Part shown: in pieces, positions 1-5,889 of the stretch
Numbering within the stretch: the first letter of the stretch is position 1
Layout: every line of letters begins with the position of its first letter
DNA from: Deltaproteobacteria bacterium
Lineage (GTDB): Bacteria > Desulfobacterota > DSM-4660 > Desulfatiglandales > B25-G16
Length of the DNA: 6,142 nucleotides
NCBI GenBank assembly: GCA_020348625.1
Contig: CP070752.1
Span: forward strand, 1,426,996 to 1,433,137
Direction: 5' to 3'
The notes under the pieces: generated by a model
Seen by the model: only the letters and a program-made list of their open reading frames with translations
Told to the model about the DNA's origin: nothing
Databases searched by the model: none
Translations under genes and position numbers: made by a program

Positions 1-309
1 CTCGGAAGGGCTGCTGAAAATCGCCTGAAGGAGCTGGGCTATGAGAACATCACCGTAAAAGTGGCAGACGGCTACTATGGATGGGAAGACCACGCCCCTT
101 TTGACTGTATCGTTGTAACGGCAGCCTCTGATCACATACCCCCGCCCCTTGTTCAGCAGCTGAAAAGGGGCGGGAAGATGGCAATCCCGGTAGGTCACCC
201 TTTCGGCGTGCAAGACCTCATGGTAGTAGAAAAATCGGAGGACGGGGAGATAAAAACCCGTAACGTCCTGCCGGTTAGATTTGTGCCTTTTCGCCGCACG
301 TGGAAATGA
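1..309 (+). CDS. pcm: Protein-L-isoaspartate O-methyltransferase, C-terminal half (partial at left edge)
   Basis: This enzyme transfers a methyl group from S-adenosylmethionine to L-isoaspartyl residues in damaged proteins, starting their repair, and normally acts in the cytoplasm. The frame is open from base 1 and ends in TGA at 307-309, leaving 102 residues; the family is usually a little over 200, so about half is visible. Visible residues match the family: a VADGYYGW stretch (codons 21-28), then FDCIVVTAA (34-42) followed by IPPPL, which is the conserved post-motif segment, then the QLKRGGKMAIPVG strand-turn (53-65), and a VRFVPF ending. The N-terminal SAM-binding glycine motif lies outside the window. 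It is followed after about 19 bases by the membrane protein gene on the same strand, so the two are probably co-transcribed. Nothing about the visible half looks damaged. Confidence 0.93.
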   Translation, partial: LGRAAENRLKELGYENITVKVADGYYGWEDHAPFDCIVVTAASDHIPPPLVQQLKRGGKMAIPVGHPFGVQDLMVVEKSEDGEIKTRNVLPVRFVPFRRTWK

Positions 310-328
310 CGGGCAGACGTTGCATCCC

Positions 329-2782
329 ATGTCGTTTAAAAACGATCAGAACGCTATCCCCTTTCTGGCTCTCCTCTGTATCTCTTCAAGTTCCCTGGCC
401 TTTGAGCTCGTTCTCATGCGGCTTTTTAGCATCGTCCAATGGTATCACTTCGCATATATGGTTATCAGTATAGCGCTCCTGGGATTTGCTGCGAGCGGCA
501 CCCTATTGGCTGTTATCCAGACCAGAGGTGGTTGGCATCCTGCTGAGCGGCAAAAGACCCTTATTCTTCCGCTTACCGCTTTCTTGCTTTTTCTGGCTAC
601 GATAGCAAGCTTTTCTGTGGCACAAAAGATCCCGTTCTCGCCTTTCCAGTTGGCCTGGCACAAGCGGCAATACCTCTATCTTACCGGCTACTACGTAACC
701 TTTTTTATCCCCTTCTTCTTGGCAGGATGTTTCATCGGGTTGCACTTCATGCATTTCAGGGAGCAGATAGGCCGGGTCTACTGCTTTAACTTGCTTGGAT
801 CGGGGGTGGGAGTGGCAATAGCAGTGATTTCTTTCTTTCTGCTGCCTCCTAAACTGTTGCTTCTATCCCCAAGCCTTTTTGCCTTGTTGGGTTTCATCTT
901 TTCCTTACAGAGGATGGCCAGAACGAGGGTCTTTCTCTTAGGGAGCATGATAGGGGTCATCCTCATTTCCGTCCACCTGATACAGGGAGGAGCAACGTTA
1001 AAGATCTCTCAATTCAAGGGGATCAGTAAGGTCCTGCACTTGCCCGGGTCGCAGATCGAGCACGAGGAATATTCGCCTTTGGGACTGGTACAGGTAGTGG
1101 CTGCTCCGTCGCTCAGGTTCGCACCCGGGTTGAGTCTTATCTATGACCGGAGCCTCCCCCCCCAGAAGGAGATTTTTGTTGATGGGAATACATACGGAGC
1201 CGTCACCAATTCTGAAGGCAAGAGGGACGCCCTGGCGTATCTTGACTACGGCACCTTTGCACTTGCCTATCATGTAATCTCCCCCCACGATGTATTGGTA
1301 GTTAATTCTGCAGGGGGAAGTCAGGTTTTGGCTGCTTTATACCACGCCGCAGATCACATACAAGGTGTTGAGCCTCATCCTTCAGTTGTCAGCCTTCTGA
1401 GGGGACCCCTGAAATCCTTTACCCAGAGTATCTACGACAGCCACCCCCATGTTGATATTGAGGTGGCATCTCCCAGGGAGTTCATGGCCAAGGGCAACGG
1501 GAGATTTGATCTTATCCAATTGAACCTGATCGGCAGTTGGGGCGGGGTCGGAGGAGGTATCTACGCTGCCGGAGAGAATTACAGTTATACTGTAGAGGCG
1601 TTCCGAGATTACTTCGACCACCTCACGCCCGAGGGCATCCTGAGTGCATCGGCATGGCTCAGCAGTCCTCCTCGAACGTTTTTGAAGCTCTTAGGCCTTG
1701 CGGCCGAGACCTTACGAGGGGACGGCGCAGGAAGCATCTCTCAATCATTGGTTGCCATTCGGAGCTGGGCAACGGGGACCGTGCTTATGAAGAAGGGGGA
1801 ATTCAGCGGTACGGACATCGTGCGGATCAAGGACTTCTGTACTAAAAGAGGCTTTGACCTGGTCTATTATCCCGGGATTCATAGAGATGAGGTCAACCGC
1901 TACAGCGTGTTGGATGCGCCCATCTATTATGAAAGTGCTCTAAGATTGATGCAAAGGGATACATGTCGTGAATTGTACGAGAACTACCTATTCAATATAA
2001 GACCACCAACCGACGATAAACCATACTTTCTTCACTTCCTCAGGCTGTCAGCACTGCCGTATCTTCTCAAAACAATGGGTAAGGAATGGGTCCCCTTCCT
2101 TGAATGGGGATCGGTGATCTTGTGGGGTACCTTGCTGCAGGCCCTGGTTCTGGCCCCCCTCTTCATATTTTTGCCCCTACTCTTGTTAAGAGGCGGAGAG
2201 GGGCTGGCTCCTCTGGGGAAGGGAAAGACCTTTGCCTACTTCTTCCTGATCGGACTGGCGTTCATGTTCGTGGAGATGGGTTTGATCCAGAAGACCATCT
2301 TAGTACTGATCCATCCGATCACTGCCCTCGCCCTGGTGTTGTTTGCCCTTCTGTTGTTCTCCGGCGTGGGCAGCCTCTTGAGTTCCCGATTAGGTGGTAG
2401 CAGGCACTGGCTGCCGTTTGGAGTGATACTCCTCTTCTCACTGCTCTTCATCACCTGCATCGACGGGTTGTTCAGGACCTTTCTTGCGTACCCCCTTTTC
2501 CTTAGGTGTTTGCTCGTGGTCTGTTTGTTGGCGCCCTTGGGCCTTTTTATGGGTATGCCCTTTCCCATGGGGCTCCAAAAGGTCTCGGACAGGCAGAGCC
2601 ATTACATACCGTGGGTGTGGGGGGTAAACGGGGTTGCCTCAGTCATTGCCCCTGTCTTAGGAAGCATACTGAGTGTGTGGCTCGGCTTTCGCACGCTCAT
2701 GATTGCCAGTCTCTTGCTCTATGCCGTGGCTGGATGGATACTCCATCTTCTTGCCCGTGACAGAGGAGACACCAGAGCTTGA
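329..2782 (+). CDS. Polytopic membrane protein with spermidine-synthase-like (SAM-fold) central domain
   Basis: The 817-residue product has three parts. Residues ~10-219 hold about seven hydrophobic segments (roughly 10-28, 42-63, 79-98, 120-140, 153-172, 178-194, 201-219). Residues ~220-590 are soluble and carry a Rossmann-like region: strand VLVVNSAGG (322-330), then GVEPHP (346-351), whose acidic residue sits where SAM ribose is bound in the family, then FDLIQLNL (393-400). PPTDDKPYF at 559-567 is a motif I associate with membrane-fused spermidine-synthase homologues. About seven more hydrophobic segments follow (from ~594), with FPMGL and PWVWGVNG near 745-768. The substrate is unknown. 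The usual glycine-rich loop (GGGDG type) is replaced by NSAGGSQ and the expected acidic catalytic residue after the FD strand is absent, so true aminopropyl transfer is doubtful. I chose ATG 329; TTG 281 or TTG 320 in frame are possible, but 281 overlaps pcm, and no start has a strong ribosome binding site. Confidence 0.85.
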   Translation: MSFKNDQNAIPFLALLCISSSSLAFELVLMRLFSIVQWYHFAYMVISIALLGFAASGTLLAVIQTRGGWHPAERQKTLILPLTAFLLFLATIASFSVAQKIPFSPFQLAWHKRQYLYLTGYYVTFFIPFFLAGCFIGLHFMHFREQIGRVYCFNLLGSGVGVAIAVISFFLLPPKLLLLSPSLFALLGFIFSLQRMARTRVFLLGSMIGVILISVHLIQGGATLKISQFKGISKVLHLPGSQIEHEEYSPLGLVQVVAAPSLRFAPGLSLIYDRSLPPQKEIFVDGNTYGAVTNSEGKRDALAYLDYGTFALAYHVISPHDVLVVNSAGGSQVLAALYHAADHIQGVEPHPSVVSLLRGPLKSFTQSIYDSHPHVDIEVASPREFMAKGNGRFDLIQLNLIGSWGGVGGGIYAAGENYSYTVEAFRDYFDHLTPEGILSASAWLSSPPRTFLKLLGLAAETLRGDGAGSISQSLVAIRSWATGTVLMKKGEFSGTDIVRIKDFCTKRGFDLVYYPGIHRDEVNRYSVLDAPIYYESALRLMQRDTCRELYENYLFNIRPPTDDKPYFLHFLRLSALPYLLKTMGKEWVPFLEWGSVILWGTLLQALVLAPLFIFLPLLLLRGGEGLAPLGKGKTFAYFFLIGLAFMFVEMGLIQKTILVLIHPITALALVLFALLLFSGVGSLLSSRLGGSRHWLPFGVILLFSLLFITCIDGLFRTFLAYPLFLRCLLVVCLLAPLGLFMGMPFPMGLQKVSDRQSHYIPWVWGVNGVASVIAPVLGSILSVWLGFRTLMIASLLLYAVAGWILHLLARDRGDTRA

Positions 2783-2810: not shown

Positions 2811-4178
2811 TCAAAGGGTCTGCCTTCGCAGGATGTCATAGTACGTTCGTATTCGATTTATGTATCGCACCGGCTCTGTGCCGCGGCAGTAGCCGTGTTT
2901 TGACTGCCGTATATATTCTTCATAACAGAGCAGGGGGAGGGTCTGCTCGAGAGAGGACCACCTATTCGGGTCGAACCCTCTCTTGCGTGCAATCCTTTGG
3001 GCGCTCAGGATGTGTCTGGGCCCCACATTGTAGCTGGCGAGGGCAATGAACATGCGGTCCGGATCCTCCGCCTTTTCATGGCGTTTATAGAGCCTTTTCA
3101 GATATTTCACCCCGCCCATAATACTCTGGTACGGGTCGAGTCGGTTTGTAACGCCCATCTCCCGGGCGGTCGCCTGGGTGAGCTGCATTAATCCCCTCAC
3201 GCCGCGGTGACTTTTTGCCCTGGGATTAAAGTGCGACTCCTGATATGTGACTGCTGCAATCAACCTCCAATCGAAGCCATGCATTGTTGCAGCTTCTTTG
3301 ATGATGGGTTGGTATTTGGGCAGCCTCGTCTTGATACGCTGGTGGAATTTCTTAAGGTCAAACCGGTCAAAGACTTGCTCATCGCTGAAATAGTCCCGGT
3401 AGATGTCGTCGAATGTCCCGTCGGACTTGATTTTTTTGAAAAAACCGTTGATTGCCTTGAGGAGAGACCTCTGTCCTTTCTTTACCGCCCATCCCAAGCG
3501 CTGGGTTTCTGCGATGGGGACGCCTATTCTGACAGTGGGGTAGTAGCGAAGATTGAGCCGAGCGATGTTGGAATCGGCGATGGTAACCTCGATCTCCTTA
3601 TCTGCCACTTGCCGTATGAGTTCTTCTGTTGGAACGTCATCATGAACCTTGATGGTGAGATCAAGGCCCTGTTGCCGCAATTCGGAAAGCCGCTCCTCGT
3701 AGGAGGTAGCCTTGCGCACGTGGACGGTCTTTCCGCTCAGATCCGCCACGTCTTCTATGGTGTGGTTATTTTCGCGGACGATAACCCTCTGTTGGACAGT
3801 GAGATATCCGTCGGAGAAATCGATCAGTTCTTTGCGCGAGGATGTAACGGTCTTGCTGGCAGCGATAAAGTCACCTCTTCCCTCATTGAGGGCCTTGATC
3901 ATGTCCGCCCACGGGAATATCTTTACCTTAAGCCTAACCCCCAGATGATCTGCAAAGGCCTTGGCCAGGTCGTACTCAAAGCCCATGGGCTGCTCACGAT
4001 AGATATAATAGCAGTGGGCATTGCTCCTCGTTATGACGGTTATCTCCTTGGCTTTGCGGATCTTCTGCAGGCTGTCTTCTTTTGCTTCAACGCTACCGCT
4101 CAATGCGAGTAACGATACAATAGAGAGGAGGAGCATCCCGGCTTTGTAGCGTGATCCAGGGGTCATCTGATGAGTCAC
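2811..4178 (-). CDS. mltF: Membrane-bound lytic murein transglycosylase F-type (solute-binding domain + SLT domain)
   Basis: Lytic transglycosylase that cleaves peptidoglycan between MurNAc and GlcNAc to give 1,6-anhydro ends, in the periplasm. The 455-residue product begins with a signal peptide: basic R10/K12, hydrophobic MLLLSIVSLLAL at 15-26, and a VEA cleavage site at 30-32. Residues ~36-265 form a family-3 solute-binding domain (GFEYDLAKAFADHLG at 66-80, IDFSDGYL at 119-126, DLSGKTVHV at 146-153). Residues ~285-430 are the SLT domain: QESHFNPRAKS with catalytic Glu314, GVRGLMQLTQATA at 326-338, ALASYNVG at 379-386. This domain order defines MltF; E. coli MltF is somewhat longer. No lipobox cysteine is seen, so it is soluble or peripheral rather than a lipoprotein. 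The listed start is GTG at 4178; ATG at 4166 keeps the same signal peptide and is equally possible, as neither has a good ribosome binding site. It lies 91 bases after the cytochrome gene and may share its transcript. Confidence 0.92.
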   Translation of the reverse strand: MTHQMTPGSRYKAGMLLLSIVSLLALSGSVEAKEDSLQKIRKAKEITVITRSNAHCYYIYREQPMGFEYDLAKAFADHLGVRLKVKIFPWADMIKALNEGRGDFIAASKTVTSSRKELIDFSDGYLTVQQRVIVRENNHTIEDVADLSGKTVHVRKATSYEERLSELRQQGLDLTIKVHDDVPTEELIRQVADKEIEVTIADSNIARLNLRYYPTVRIGVPIAETQRLGWAVKKGQRSLLKAINGFFKKIKSDGTFDDIYRDYFSDEQVFDRFDLKKFHQRIKTRLPKYQPIIKEAATMHGFDWRLIAAVTYQESHFNPRAKSHRGVRGLMQLTQATAREMGVTNRLDPYQSIMGGVKYLKRLYKRHEKAEDPDRMFIALASYNVGPRHILSAQRIARKRGFDPNRWSSLEQTLPLLCYEEYIRQSKHGYCRGTEPVRYINRIRTYYDILRRQTL

Positions 4179-4269: not shown

Positions 4270-5877
4270 TTATCTGCTGGTTCTCCGCAGTTCCTCGGCC
4301 AATACCTTGATCTCAGTCAGATCCTGGCGTAGTGCGCTCCAGCCGTACCAGAATGCGTAGTCCGGGTTGGCGTGAAACGTCCCCTGAAATGTCCTCATGC
4401 GGTGCTCCAGGAACATGACGAAAAGCTTCTGTTCGATTGGGGTCGGCGCATCATGGAACGTGAGCAGGTCGGGAAATGGGTATGGATAATTCTCTGGTTT
4501 CTCGAGTGTCCCGTCCCGATATAAGTCGGCGACAATCTGTATTGCCTCGGCCATGAGCAGGTCGGCTTCTCGAATCATTTGATCACCCTTTTCCAGCTCG
4601 CCCCTTGCAAAATTGATGGAATGACACTGTGTGCAGGTCTGCACCATCTTGGTCCGCTCCTTTTGCCAATCGGCTTGGCTCAGGCGCGCCACATCCGCTG
4701 CCTTGACCACCTCGAGCCTGTCAGTGGGTTTTCCATCGGGGTCCAGCACACCAAGCGCTTTCAATATGGTAGCCCGGGCGGAGGCCCATGTTTTGTCCTC
4801 GGGCATGGGCAGTCGAACTGCCAGGAATCCCCATGCTGCCCGTACTTCGTGATTGCCCTCTTGCATGTGACAGGTCTGACAACTTGGTGCGGCAGCTGTT
4901 TCGGGAAGGACCCCATTCTGCTTCAACAGAAACCGTACACCGTGTTTGGAAGCCGAATACATCTCCCACTGGGGGTGATCGAATCCCATGTGGCAGGTCT
5001 GGCAGGCCTGTGGTTGTCTGGCTTCCTTGACCGAAAACAGGTGTCGTGTGTGACATACATCGCAGGAGGCAAGCCCGAAGCCCGCTCCTTGGTTCTTGAG
5101 CTCCTTGATCTCTGCCTCGGTCTTGACGCCGATCTTATGACAACCTCCGCAGCCTTTCATGCCTTCCATCAATGCCATGGGTTGCCAGTGGGCAGTGGGC
5201 ATTGCCTTCATAGCAGCCCACGCCAGGGCATGTTTTCCTGCCATAAATTGAGCTCCCTGGATTTCATGACACTGCCTGCAGGTGTCTGCGGCGGGAACCA
5301 GAACCTTGTCCACATCCTCGGCTGACACATGTTGATCGCCATGGCATACGTTACAGCCCACCTCATTCTTGCTGTGAGCGCTCAACATCCAATCCGATAC
5401 GATATTGGCGGTGACAAAGGTATGGCATGTAACACAATTCTGTGATTCAGCCTCCTTGTCCTCGACGGGACAGTTTGCTTTAACCCATTCCCTGTAGCCG
5501 CCCTCAAGACAGTATACCTTTTCAAAACCCATTTCTTTAAGCTTCTGTGCCACCCGGGCACTGGTCGATTCCGTGGGTCACGCTCAGTACAAGACAATGG
5601 TCTTGTCTTTGGGATAGTTGCCGGCCCACGATTCGATAGCCATCGGGTCCTCATGGATGGCGCCAACGATTTTCAATTTGGTTTGCTTCCACTGTTGCTC
5701 GGGGCGAACGTCGAGGATGATGACCTCGGGATCTGCGAGGTTCTCCATAAGCTCCTCTTTCGTTATCCGGGGGACGTCAGGATACGGAATTGAGTTGGAC
5801 TTCTTAGCTACTGCAGAGACATCGGCGACTGCCAAAAATAGCCCCCCTGCCAAGATGGCTGCTATCAACCCTTTCAT
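4270..5877 (-). CDS. Exported rhodanese–octaheme HAO-like cytochrome fusion, putative selenoprotein with Sec98-Ala-Sec100
   Basis: One 535-residue reading frame if two TGA codons (5584-5586, 5578-5580) are read as selenocysteine. ATG 5877 is chosen because AGGAGG lies six bases upstream. Residues 1-~24 are a signal peptide (MKGLIAAILAGGLFLAV, cleavage near VSA or AVA). Residues ~35-135 are a rhodanese domain: ITKEEL, VIILDVRP (52-59), TIVLY then U98-A-U100-P-T-E-S-T-S-A-R-V-A, ending LEGGYREW. Residues ~145-535 carry eight CxxCH heme sites at 148, 175, 200, 243, 272, 292, 333 and 415. They align one-to-one, as I recall the sequence, with Nitrosomonas hydroxylamine oxidoreductase, including CDVCHTRH, ACQTCHMGFDH, SKHG and TCTQCHS...FAR. 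The C-terminus has HANPDYAFWYGW, where the HAO heme-P460 tyrosine seems not conserved, which favours a reductive role (nitrite, hydroxylamine or a sulfur species). Function of the fusion is unknown. It acts in the periplasm, where hemes are attached. Confidence 0.82.
5527..5578 (-). promoter_or_regulatory. Candidate bacterial SECIS stem-loop downstream of the two UGA codons
   Basis: On the minus strand GTGCC (5561-5557) pairs perfectly with GGCAC (5551-5547) around the five-base loop CGGGT (5556-5552), whose second base is G. The loop starts 27 nt after the first UGA and 21 nt after the second. This fits the published bacterial SECIS model as I recall it: a short upper stem, a G in the first two loop bases, and a loop 16-37 nt from the UGA. 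An outer five-base stem, ACCCA (5578-5574) with TGGGT (5531-5527), could close the structure over large internal loops; this part is less certain. One element could serve both codons. SelB binding is inferred, not shown. Confidence 0.68.
5578..5586 (-). other. Two in-frame TGA codons (TGA-GCG-TGA) proposed to encode selenocysteine
   Basis: On the minus strand the frame reads TTG-TAC-TGA-GCG-TGA-CCC-ACG-GAA, that is L-Y-U-A-U-P-T-E. In single-domain rhodaneses with a Y-C-x-C-P-N-E active loop (family knowledge, recalled), the two TGAs fall on the catalytic cysteine and the cysteine two residues later. The rhodanese fold continues in the same frame on both sides, with no other stop in about 1.6 kb. 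The three other genes here end in TGA, so TGA is a stop by default and recoding must be local. Confidence 0.85.
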
Positions 5878-5883
5878 GAGTTT

Positions 5884-5889
5884 CCTCCT
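5884..5889 (-). promoter_or_regulatory. Ribosome binding site AGGAGG that decides the cytochrome start
   Basis: The minus strand reads ATG-AGG-AGG-AAA-CTC-ATG. The perfect AGGAGG lies six bases before ATG 5877, so the upstream ATG at 5892, which would place the Shine-Dalgarno inside the coding region, is not the likely start. Starting at 5877 also gives a cleaner signal peptide beginning MKGLIAA. Confidence 0.88.

What the first reader, a model, noticed from the sequence alone, without database searches (positions are those of the whole stretch)
4270..5877. Rhodanese–octaheme HAO-like fusion is one selenoprotein with a U-x-U active site, not two genes
Seen directly: an exported rhodanese fragment ends at TGA, and a cytochrome frame opens in the same frame just beyond TGA-GCG-TGA. 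The rhodanese fold is completed only by joining them. The cytochrome alone would lack a signal peptide, although heme attachment needs export, and its GTG 5553 has no ribosome binding site. Both TGAs fall on the cysteines of the known Y-C-x-C-P-x-E rhodanese loop. Inference: Sec98 and Sec100 form a selenenylsulfide or diselenide-capable pair coupled to an eight-heme electron wire, in a periplasmic enzyme handling sulfur, selenium or nitrogen oxides. Sec-containing rhodaneses have been predicted before; I do not know of a described U-x-U rhodanese fused to an octaheme HAO-like module.
Basis: partly seen in the sequence, partly recalled or inferred. Interest (0 to 1): 0.93.

Follow-up and report, generated by a model that had tools for sequence, protein, structure and literature searches.

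The report
Double-selenocysteine rhodanese wired to eight hemes
Two neighbouring gene fragments read as one gene interrupted by two UGA codons that are predicted to encode selenocysteine, joining a sulfur-handling rhodanese domain to an eight-heme cytochrome; the same joined gene is found in seventeen related genomes, so databases have probably been splitting a selenium enzyme family in two, one that likely moves electrons to or from sulfur or selenium compounds.

Summary
On the minus strand, 5877-4270 is one 535-aa frame (signal peptide, rhodanese, eight CxxCH motifs) broken only by TGA-GCG-TGA at 5586-5578. These are very probably two selenocysteine codons. (1) Seventeen other genomes carry the fusion; with the window, 16 of 18 have U-A-U and 2 have C-A-U. 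(2) In 82 Sec rhodaneses, site 1 is only TGC, TGT or TGA, and a 5-bp hairpin follows: all pairs in 81 of 82, two-sided changes at four of five pairs, G then G/U in the loop in 82 of 82. It fits the published bacterial SECIS model and lies in range of both UGAs. (3) selA is found in 15 of the 17 fusion genomes. The window's own genome is not held, so its Sec genes were not tested. The C-x-U rhodanese is already known (NF041203); my searches found neither the U-x-U site nor the fusion to an HAO-like octaheme cytochrome in print. Function is inference: most likely a periplasmic sulfane-sulfur redox enzyme whose Sec pair exchanges electrons with the hemes; nitrite/hydroxylamine or selenite reduction are rivals. 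New variant of a known kind.

The parts
4270..5877 (-). whole fusion gene, 535 codons read through both TGAs, stop TAA
   Evidence: the same frame in 17 other genomes
5884..5889 (-). Shine-Dalgarno-like AGGAGG, 6 nt before ATG 5877
   Evidence: sequence
5806..5877 (-). predicted signal peptide (judged by eye)
   Evidence: no signal-peptide program was run
5455..5790 (-). rhodanese domain, NF041203-type
   Evidence: 149.6 bits, cut-off 115; Pfam PF00581 61.3 bits; AF2 blocks mostly above 75 pLDDT here
5584..5586 (-). UGA1, predicted Sec98 (site 1)
   Evidence: site 1 is TGC 38, TGT 19, TGA 25 in 82 relatives incl. the window
5578..5580 (-). UGA2, predicted Sec100 (site 2)
   Evidence: TGA in 18 of 18 fusions; known Sec site of the family (NF041203; PMC13188914 passages)
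5547..5561 (-). SECIS-type hairpin GUGCC-CGGGU-GGCAC, 16 nt after UGA2
   Evidence: all five pairs in 81 of 82, two-sided changes at four of five pairs; -7.6 kcal/mol for the hairpin with short flanks
4270..5436 (-). octaheme HAO-like cytochrome domain
   Evidence: eight CxxCH; PF13447 102.6 bits; PDB matches of the HAO family
5422..5436 (-). heme motif 1 (CxxCH)
5341..5355 (-). heme motif 2
5266..5280 (-). heme motif 3
5137..5151 (-). heme motif 4
5050..5064 (-). heme motif 5
4990..5004 (-). heme motif 6
4867..4881 (-). heme motif 7
4621..4635 (-). heme motif 8
4351..4353 (-). Phe codon aligned with Tyr467 of Nitrosomonas HAO (the cross-linking Tyr; its number is recalled)
   Evidence: HMMER alignment

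Best explanation
The two frames are one gene, predicted to be translated through two selenocysteine UGAs into an exported U-x-U rhodanese fused to an eight-heme HAO-like cytochrome, which likely passes electrons between sulfane-sulfur compounds and its heme chain. Shown: one conserved open frame, both codon positions conserved, a covarying hairpin 3' of the UGAs, eight CxxCH motifs, Sec-synthesis genes in relatives. Predicted: SelB with tRNA-Sec reads both UGAs, using the one hairpin (SECIS) that lies in range of both. Inferred: Sec100, the family's known Sec site, would be the nucleophile that takes up sulfane sulfur (persulfide, polysulfide, perhaps selenium); Sec98, which swaps with Cys in relatives, would resolve it; sulfide leaves, a Sec98-Sec100 diselenide forms and the hemes re-reduce it. 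The reductive direction is favoured because the position aligned with the cross-linking Tyr of oxidative HAOs is Phe here and the best solved match is a reducing HAO-like protein. Split confidence: one double-Sec gene about 0.95; one shared SECIS about 0.8; reductive sulfane-sulfur function about 0.4.
For: 18 fusions held as DNA, 16 U-A-U and 2 C-A-U. Site 1 only TGC/TGT/TGA in 82. Hairpin with two-sided changes that meets the bSECIS model (PMC13188914 passages). Slid versions pair in 0-1 of 57 and 0 of 2000 shuffles reach the observed 56. Without TGA, all five pairs form in 2 of 10 relatives (leaving out the misparsed L107). selA in 15 of 17 fusion genomes; selB 8 of 8 and selD 7 of 8 genomes searched, the selD genes over cut-off each holding one TGA. 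U-x-U as one clade is rejected, so site 1 has switched repeatedly in intact genes. HAO family; Phe at the Tyr position; meaning of the Tyr: PMC12758564 passages. Rhodanese modules joined to persulfide-handling redox partners are among the fold matches.
Against: No Sec-containing product was observed. The window's own genome is not held. Two of 17 fusion genomes show no selA, G043 no selD over cut-off, and G079's tRNA-Sec hit is marginal (47.2 bits, cut-off 47). Longer stretches around the UGAs do not fold better than shuffles (z 0.60, 1.21, -0.62) and Rfam shows nothing. The Tyr position is not constant in the family: L001 has Tyr there. AF2 models residues 219-347 badly, and the 6h5l match has TM only 0.33, so the Sec-to-heme distance is unknown. 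P0032 (C-V-Q) is a fusion without site 2. No conserved operon names a substrate.
Confidence: 0.78

Rival explanations
1. A decayed gene: the TGAs are nonsense mutations and the two halves are remnants.
For: Two stops in a row; a truly broken fusion exists in G295 (L104/L121, U-A-R, further stops).
Against: The frame and both sites are kept in 17 other genomes, with coding-type substitution and a covarying hairpin; all 25 stops at site 1 are TGA (though rows were not chosen for this).
Confidence: 0.02
2. Two separate genes: a short rhodanese ending at the first TGA and a cytochrome started internally, for example at GTG 5553.
For: This is how the database proteins P0122 and P0002 are called.
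Against: The second piece would have no signal peptide although c-type heme attachment happens outside the cytoplasm (established knowledge); the rhodanese would lack a third of its fold; C-x-U fusions with the same layout exist.
Confidence: 0.02
3. Only UGA2 is Sec; UGA1 is read by another tRNA or mostly ends translation as a regulatory stop.
For: Only UGA2 is the known Sec site of the family; one hairpin is seen for two UGAs.
Against: Site 1 alternates with Cys codons only (57 TGY, 25 TGA of 82), and the hairpin loop is 27 nt from UGA1, inside the 16-37 nt range of the model.
Confidence: 0.05
4. The main reaction is at the HAO-type heme (nitrite or hydroxylamine reduction); the Sec rhodanese is an electron-donor or regulatory head.
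For: HAO-family match, Phe at the Tyr position, best match a reducing HAO-like protein; Tyr-free HAOs are predicted, and one shown, to be reductive (PMC12758564 passages).
Against: Does not explain why Sec is placed twice in the rhodanese site; many octaheme relatives live without a rhodanese (78 of 119 hits by a motif rule).
Confidence: 0.25
5. Selenite or tellurite reduction, or selenium delivery, as proposed for the Geobacter ext cluster.
For: That cluster holds a rhodanese-like protein (ExtH) and a predicted Sec-containing multiheme cytochrome (ExtKL); the paper implicates the cluster's porin ExtI in selenite and tellurite reduction (PMC5877670 passages).
Against: Other cytochrome, other gene layout; nothing like the ext cluster was recognised among the neighbours looked at.
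Confidence: 0.15

Closest known systems
NCBIfam NF041203 rhodanese_LYCAU ('Rhodanese-like form 3', C-x-U, in PMC13188914)
   Same: Same rhodanese family (149.6 bits, cut-off 115), Sec at site 2, exported-looking
   Different: Listed with one Sec and motif C-x-U; here Sec is also at site 1 and an octaheme domain follows
HAO family, nearest the reducing Kuenenia complex Kustc0457/0458 (PDB 6h5l)
   Same: Octaheme cytochrome, best PDB match by sequence and by Foldseek
   Different: No rhodanese in the aligned PDB chain; identity 24% and TM 0.33 in a model with a poor heme region
TsoB, rhodanese/DsbD fusion-like selenoprotein (NF045694)
   Same: Rhodanese with two Sec joined to a redox module (U-x-x-x-x-U)
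   Different: 32.4 bits against a cut-off of 805; membrane DsbD-like partner by its name, no hemes
Tetrathionate reductase family octaheme cytochrome listed as a selenoprotein (TIGR04315; PMC13188914)
   Same: Octaheme selenoprotein
   Different: No match at E 1e-3; listed with one Sec and no rhodanese in the entry
Geobacter ExtH plus ExtKL (ext cluster)
   Same: Rhodanese-like protein and Sec-containing multiheme cytochrome encoded together
   Different: Separate proteins, five hemes in ExtKL, porin and Rieske partners
Persulfide dioxygenase-rhodanese (5ve4) and CoADR-RHD / NADH persulfide reductases (3ict, 3nta)
   Different: Non-heme iron or flavin partners and Cys, not Sec (partly recalled)

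Membership tests
Bacterial selenoprotein | In-frame UGA aligned with Cys/Sec in homologues | tested here: met
   18 fusions, both sites; site 1 TGY or TGA in 82
Bacterial selenoprotein | bSECIS hairpin in the accepted range | tested here: met
   5 bp, 5-nt loop with G second, loop 21 and 27 nt from UGA2 and UGA1, -7.6 kcal/mol
Bacterial selenoprotein | selABCD in the host genome | not testable with these tools
   window genome not held; in fusion-bearing relatives selA 15 of 17
Bacterial selenoprotein | Selenium found in the protein | not testable with these tools
   bench work
NF041203 rhodanese_LYCAU | Score over the equivalog cut-off | tested here: met
   149.6 v. 115; five other fusions 129.2-156.8 and P0032 135.7
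NF041203 rhodanese_LYCAU | Motif L-Y-C-A-U with Cys first (the family's name) | tested here: not met
   Sec codon at site 1; so filed as a variant, not as a plain member
HAO-family octaheme cytochrome | Eight CxxCH and HAO-family homology | tested here: met
Oxidative HAO / hydrazine dehydrogenase | Cross-linking Tyr; NF052343 cut-off | tested here: not met
   Phe at the aligned place; 95.7 v. 900 bits
TsoB (NF045694) | Score over cut-off | tested here: not met
   32.4 v. 805 bits
Octaheme tetrathionate reductase (TIGR04315) | HMM match | tested here: not met
   not listed at E 1e-3

The most novel reading that the evidence does not exclude
An unrecognised family of respiratory enzymes in which a diselenide, built from two Sec codons six nucleotides apart that share one SECIS, is the catalytic gate of an eight-heme electron chain and makes or breaks sulfane-sulfur (or selenium) bonds in the periplasm of anaerobic bacteria.
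Probability: 0.35. Interest if true: 0.88.

Novelty: new variant of a known kind. Interest (0 to 1): 0.72.

Why it matters
It would add a U-x-U rhodanese and a Sec-rhodanese/heme fusion to the known selenoproteins and make testable how SelB serves two UGAs six nucleotides apart with one SECIS in range. Because gene callers stop at UGA, 41 of 119 octaheme relatives listed begin inside the rhodanese (motif rule) and some of these are named hydroxylamine dehydrogenase (for example P0010), so counts of HAO-like genes from such names may include halves of a sulfur or selenium enzyme.

Tried and rejected
Pseudogene, two-gene and whole-code (UGA as sense everywhere) readings were rejected. Rfam found nothing. 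A protein search with residues 1-150 of P0001 found nothing at E 1e-10 among 432 candidates. tblastn of the rhodanese against the 80 genome loci hit only L001 at E 1e-3, so no rhodanese of this kind was found in the fetched flanks of the other 79. RNA folding of longer single stretches was uninformative. Gene context: neighbours are shared by eye within the G004/G043/G079 class but none with the window (only nine neighbour proteins of those loci were scanned with Pfam). In G373 a C-T-U rhodanese and a separate octaheme gene lie about 1.5 kb apart on opposite strands with another gene between: too weak for an operon argument. Which site holds the canonical rhodanese cysteine stayed open: HMMER puts site 1 on the strand-end Cys in 6pfz and 3nhv, while in 6mxv the ungapped alignment puts site 2 there. 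AF2 gave a good rhodanese but a poor heme region. In the cytochrome tree fused and separate forms do not split cleanly (three changes needed), so repeated fusion or loss of the rhodanese is not excluded there, although the rhodanese tree allows one fusion clade. The PDB second look lists rhodaneses almost only; absence of HAO there means nothing. Novelty searches; judged from listings, and from passages of some papers; the library lacks most subscription papers and all preprints.

Full report
What is in the sequence. The minus-strand frame from ATG 5877 (AGGAGG at 5889-5884) to TAA 4272-4270 has 535 codons and is open except for TGA at 5586-5584 and 5580-5578. It reads as a signal peptide (by eye), a rhodanese and eight CxxCH motifs. 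The rhodanese match is complete only when the frame is joined: 27.4 bits over profile positions 1-67 for the upstream piece, 61.3 bits over 1-101 for the joined protein. NCBIfam's rhodanese_LYCAU model, named a rhodanese-related (seleno)protein, scores 149.6 against a cut-off of 115. Three neighbouring frames in the window stop at TGA, so UGA still means stop there.

Relatives. A scan of GTDB contigs gave one full fusion in a named record, L001 (Deltaproteobacteria bacterium ALJrbin.12), with Y-C-A-TGA-P. A phylum sample (97 of 395 genomes matched the rhodanese-junction query at E 1e-10) and class searches (3 of 3 and 10 of 55 genomes matched at E 1e-30, 8 of 155 and 5 of 85 at E 1e-37) gave more. 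One search examined 26 motif rows; 18 have CxxCH motifs in frame after the motif and are fusions (the window and 17 genomes): 16 U-A-U, 2 C-A-U. Fifteen of them run 436-445 codons from site 1 to a stop; L199 meets a TGA after 370 (five motifs), and L196 and L201 run off their loci. Not in this count: L104/L121 (G295), broken and U-A-R, and the database protein P0032 with C-V-Q. Per search, fusions were 5 of 395 genomes plus the broken G295 copy (among the matches inspected), 3 of 3, 1 of 55, 8 of 155 and 5 of 85; these samples overlap.

The same site in single-domain rhodaneses. Among 82 Sec rhodaneses, all chosen for TGA at site 2, site 1 is TGC 38, TGT 19 and TGA 25. U-x-U is 16 of 18 in fusions and 9 of 64 in single-domain forms (Fisher p 5.7e-9, not corrected for kinship). 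On a rhodanese tree of few columns (quick method) the fusions can be one clade (p-AU 0.847), while U-x-U as one clade is rejected (p-AU 1e-91); at least four changes are forced by starred branches. So Cys and Sec have swapped at site 1 several times in intact genes. The cytochrome tree is less tidy: fused and separate forms need three changes.

SECIS. Starting 16 nt after UGA2 is a hairpin of 5 bp with a 5-nt loop (GUGCC-CGGGU-GGCAC, 5561-5547). All five pairs form in 81 of 82 sequences; pairs 1 to 4 show changes on both sides; the second loop base is G in 82 of 82 and the third G or U in 82 of 82. It survives changes of the encoded peptide (L141, L142, L159, L163; the T-A-A-R fusions). In the first 57 sequences, slid versions pair in 0 or 1 and none of 2000 shuffles reached the observed 56 (mean 43.8). 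Of ten relatives without TGA two keep all pairs (leaving out the misparsed row L107). The published bSECIS model asks for a 4-16 bp stem, a 3-9 nt loop with G in the first two places, 16-37 nt spacing and at most -7.5 kcal/mol (PMC13188914, passages); the window has 5 bp, 5 nt, 21 nt from UGA2 and 27 nt from UGA1, and -7.6. Against: longer stretches do not fold better than shuffles, and Rfam shows nothing.

Sec machinery. The window's own genome is not held. In eight relatives selA was over cut-off in 8, selB in 8 and selD in 7 (each selD gene over cut-off holds one TGA, itself a sign of UGA decoding). In the twelve further fusion genomes selA was found in 10. Over the 17 fusion genomes selA is present in 15. 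tRNA-Sec passes the gathering score in 10 of 10 genomes searched, but hits are also over it in 5 of 14 control genomes and G079's is only 47.2 bits, so I count 9 of 10 (69 bits or more) as convincing.

Databases split the protein. Of 46 N-terminal protein hits, 45 (the window's own included) end right after ..Y at site 1 and one after ..YCA (which stop codon is not visible). Of 119 listed cytochrome hits other than the window's own, 41 start inside the rhodanese half by a motif rule.

The cytochrome. The best solved relatives by sequence and by Foldseek are of the HAO family, first the reducing Kuenenia complex 6h5l (TM 0.33 only). The residue aligned with the cross-linking Tyr (its number recalled) is Phe; other fusions have Phe or Leu, but L001 has Tyr. 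A 2025 study says HAOs without that Tyr are predicted, and in one case shown, to be reductive (PMC12758564, passages). AF2 gives mean pLDDT 70.6; the rhodanese is good, residues 219-347 are mostly below 50.

Mechanism. Shown: architecture, conserved codons, hairpin. Inferred: Sec100 is the nucleophile because site 2 is the family's known Sec site; Sec98 resolves; the pair exchanges electrons with the hemes; the substrate is sulfane sulfur, by analogy with the rhodanese fusions to persulfide-handling redox modules among the fold matches. In Geobacter a rhodanese-like protein and a predicted Sec multiheme cytochrome share the ext cluster, whose porin is implicated in selenite and tellurite reduction (PMC5877670, passages), so selenium is a live alternative, as are nitrogen oxides.

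Novelty. The C-x-U rhodanese is known (NF041203; PMC13188914 and PMC9312934, passages). In the 2026 review's main text the search showed every place with 'rhodanese' (8 occurrences) and 'octaheme' (1), and no 'UxU': five rhodanese forms are listed, form 3 as C-x-U with one Sec, and a tetrathionate-reductase-family octaheme selenoprotein, but no rhodanese-octaheme fusion. Eight literature searches found none (listings, and passages of some papers). Hence a new variant of a known kind, with an unusual partner.

Noticed in passing
window 2811-4178 (-): MltF-like membrane-bound lytic transglycosylase (488 bits, cut-off 354), same strand, about 90 nt after the fusion's stop; not seen beside other fusions by eye.
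   Followed up: partly
window 281-2782 (+): Large membrane-protein-like frame (833 aa) with no Pfam or NCBIfam match at E 1e-3; by eye like a spermidine-synthase-type fused membrane protein.
   Followed up: no
window 1-309 (+): C-terminal part of a protein-L-isoaspartate O-methyltransferase (PF01135, 106 bits), cut by the window edge.
   Followed up: no
L103, L106, L108, L128, L129, L132, L150, L151, L155: Nine single-domain rhodaneses also have U-x-U (uAu, uTu or uSu), so the double Sec is not limited to the fusion.
   Followed up: yes
L187 6351-9534 (G373): A C-T-U Sec rhodanese and a separate octaheme gene lie about 1.5 kb apart on opposite strands, with another gene between.
   Followed up: partly
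L121 8473-9054 (G295): A broken rhodanese-octaheme fusion: U-A-R at the site, further stops, three heme motifs.
   Followed up: partly
L164 and L184: Two relatives without TGA (CSS, CTC) keep all five hairpin pairs; could be SECIS remnants or chance.
   Followed up: no
L117 4388-4921 (+), L118 8565-9050 (-): Similar small exported-looking proteins encoded upstream of, and away from, the fusion in two related genomes; no Pfam match.
   Followed up: partly
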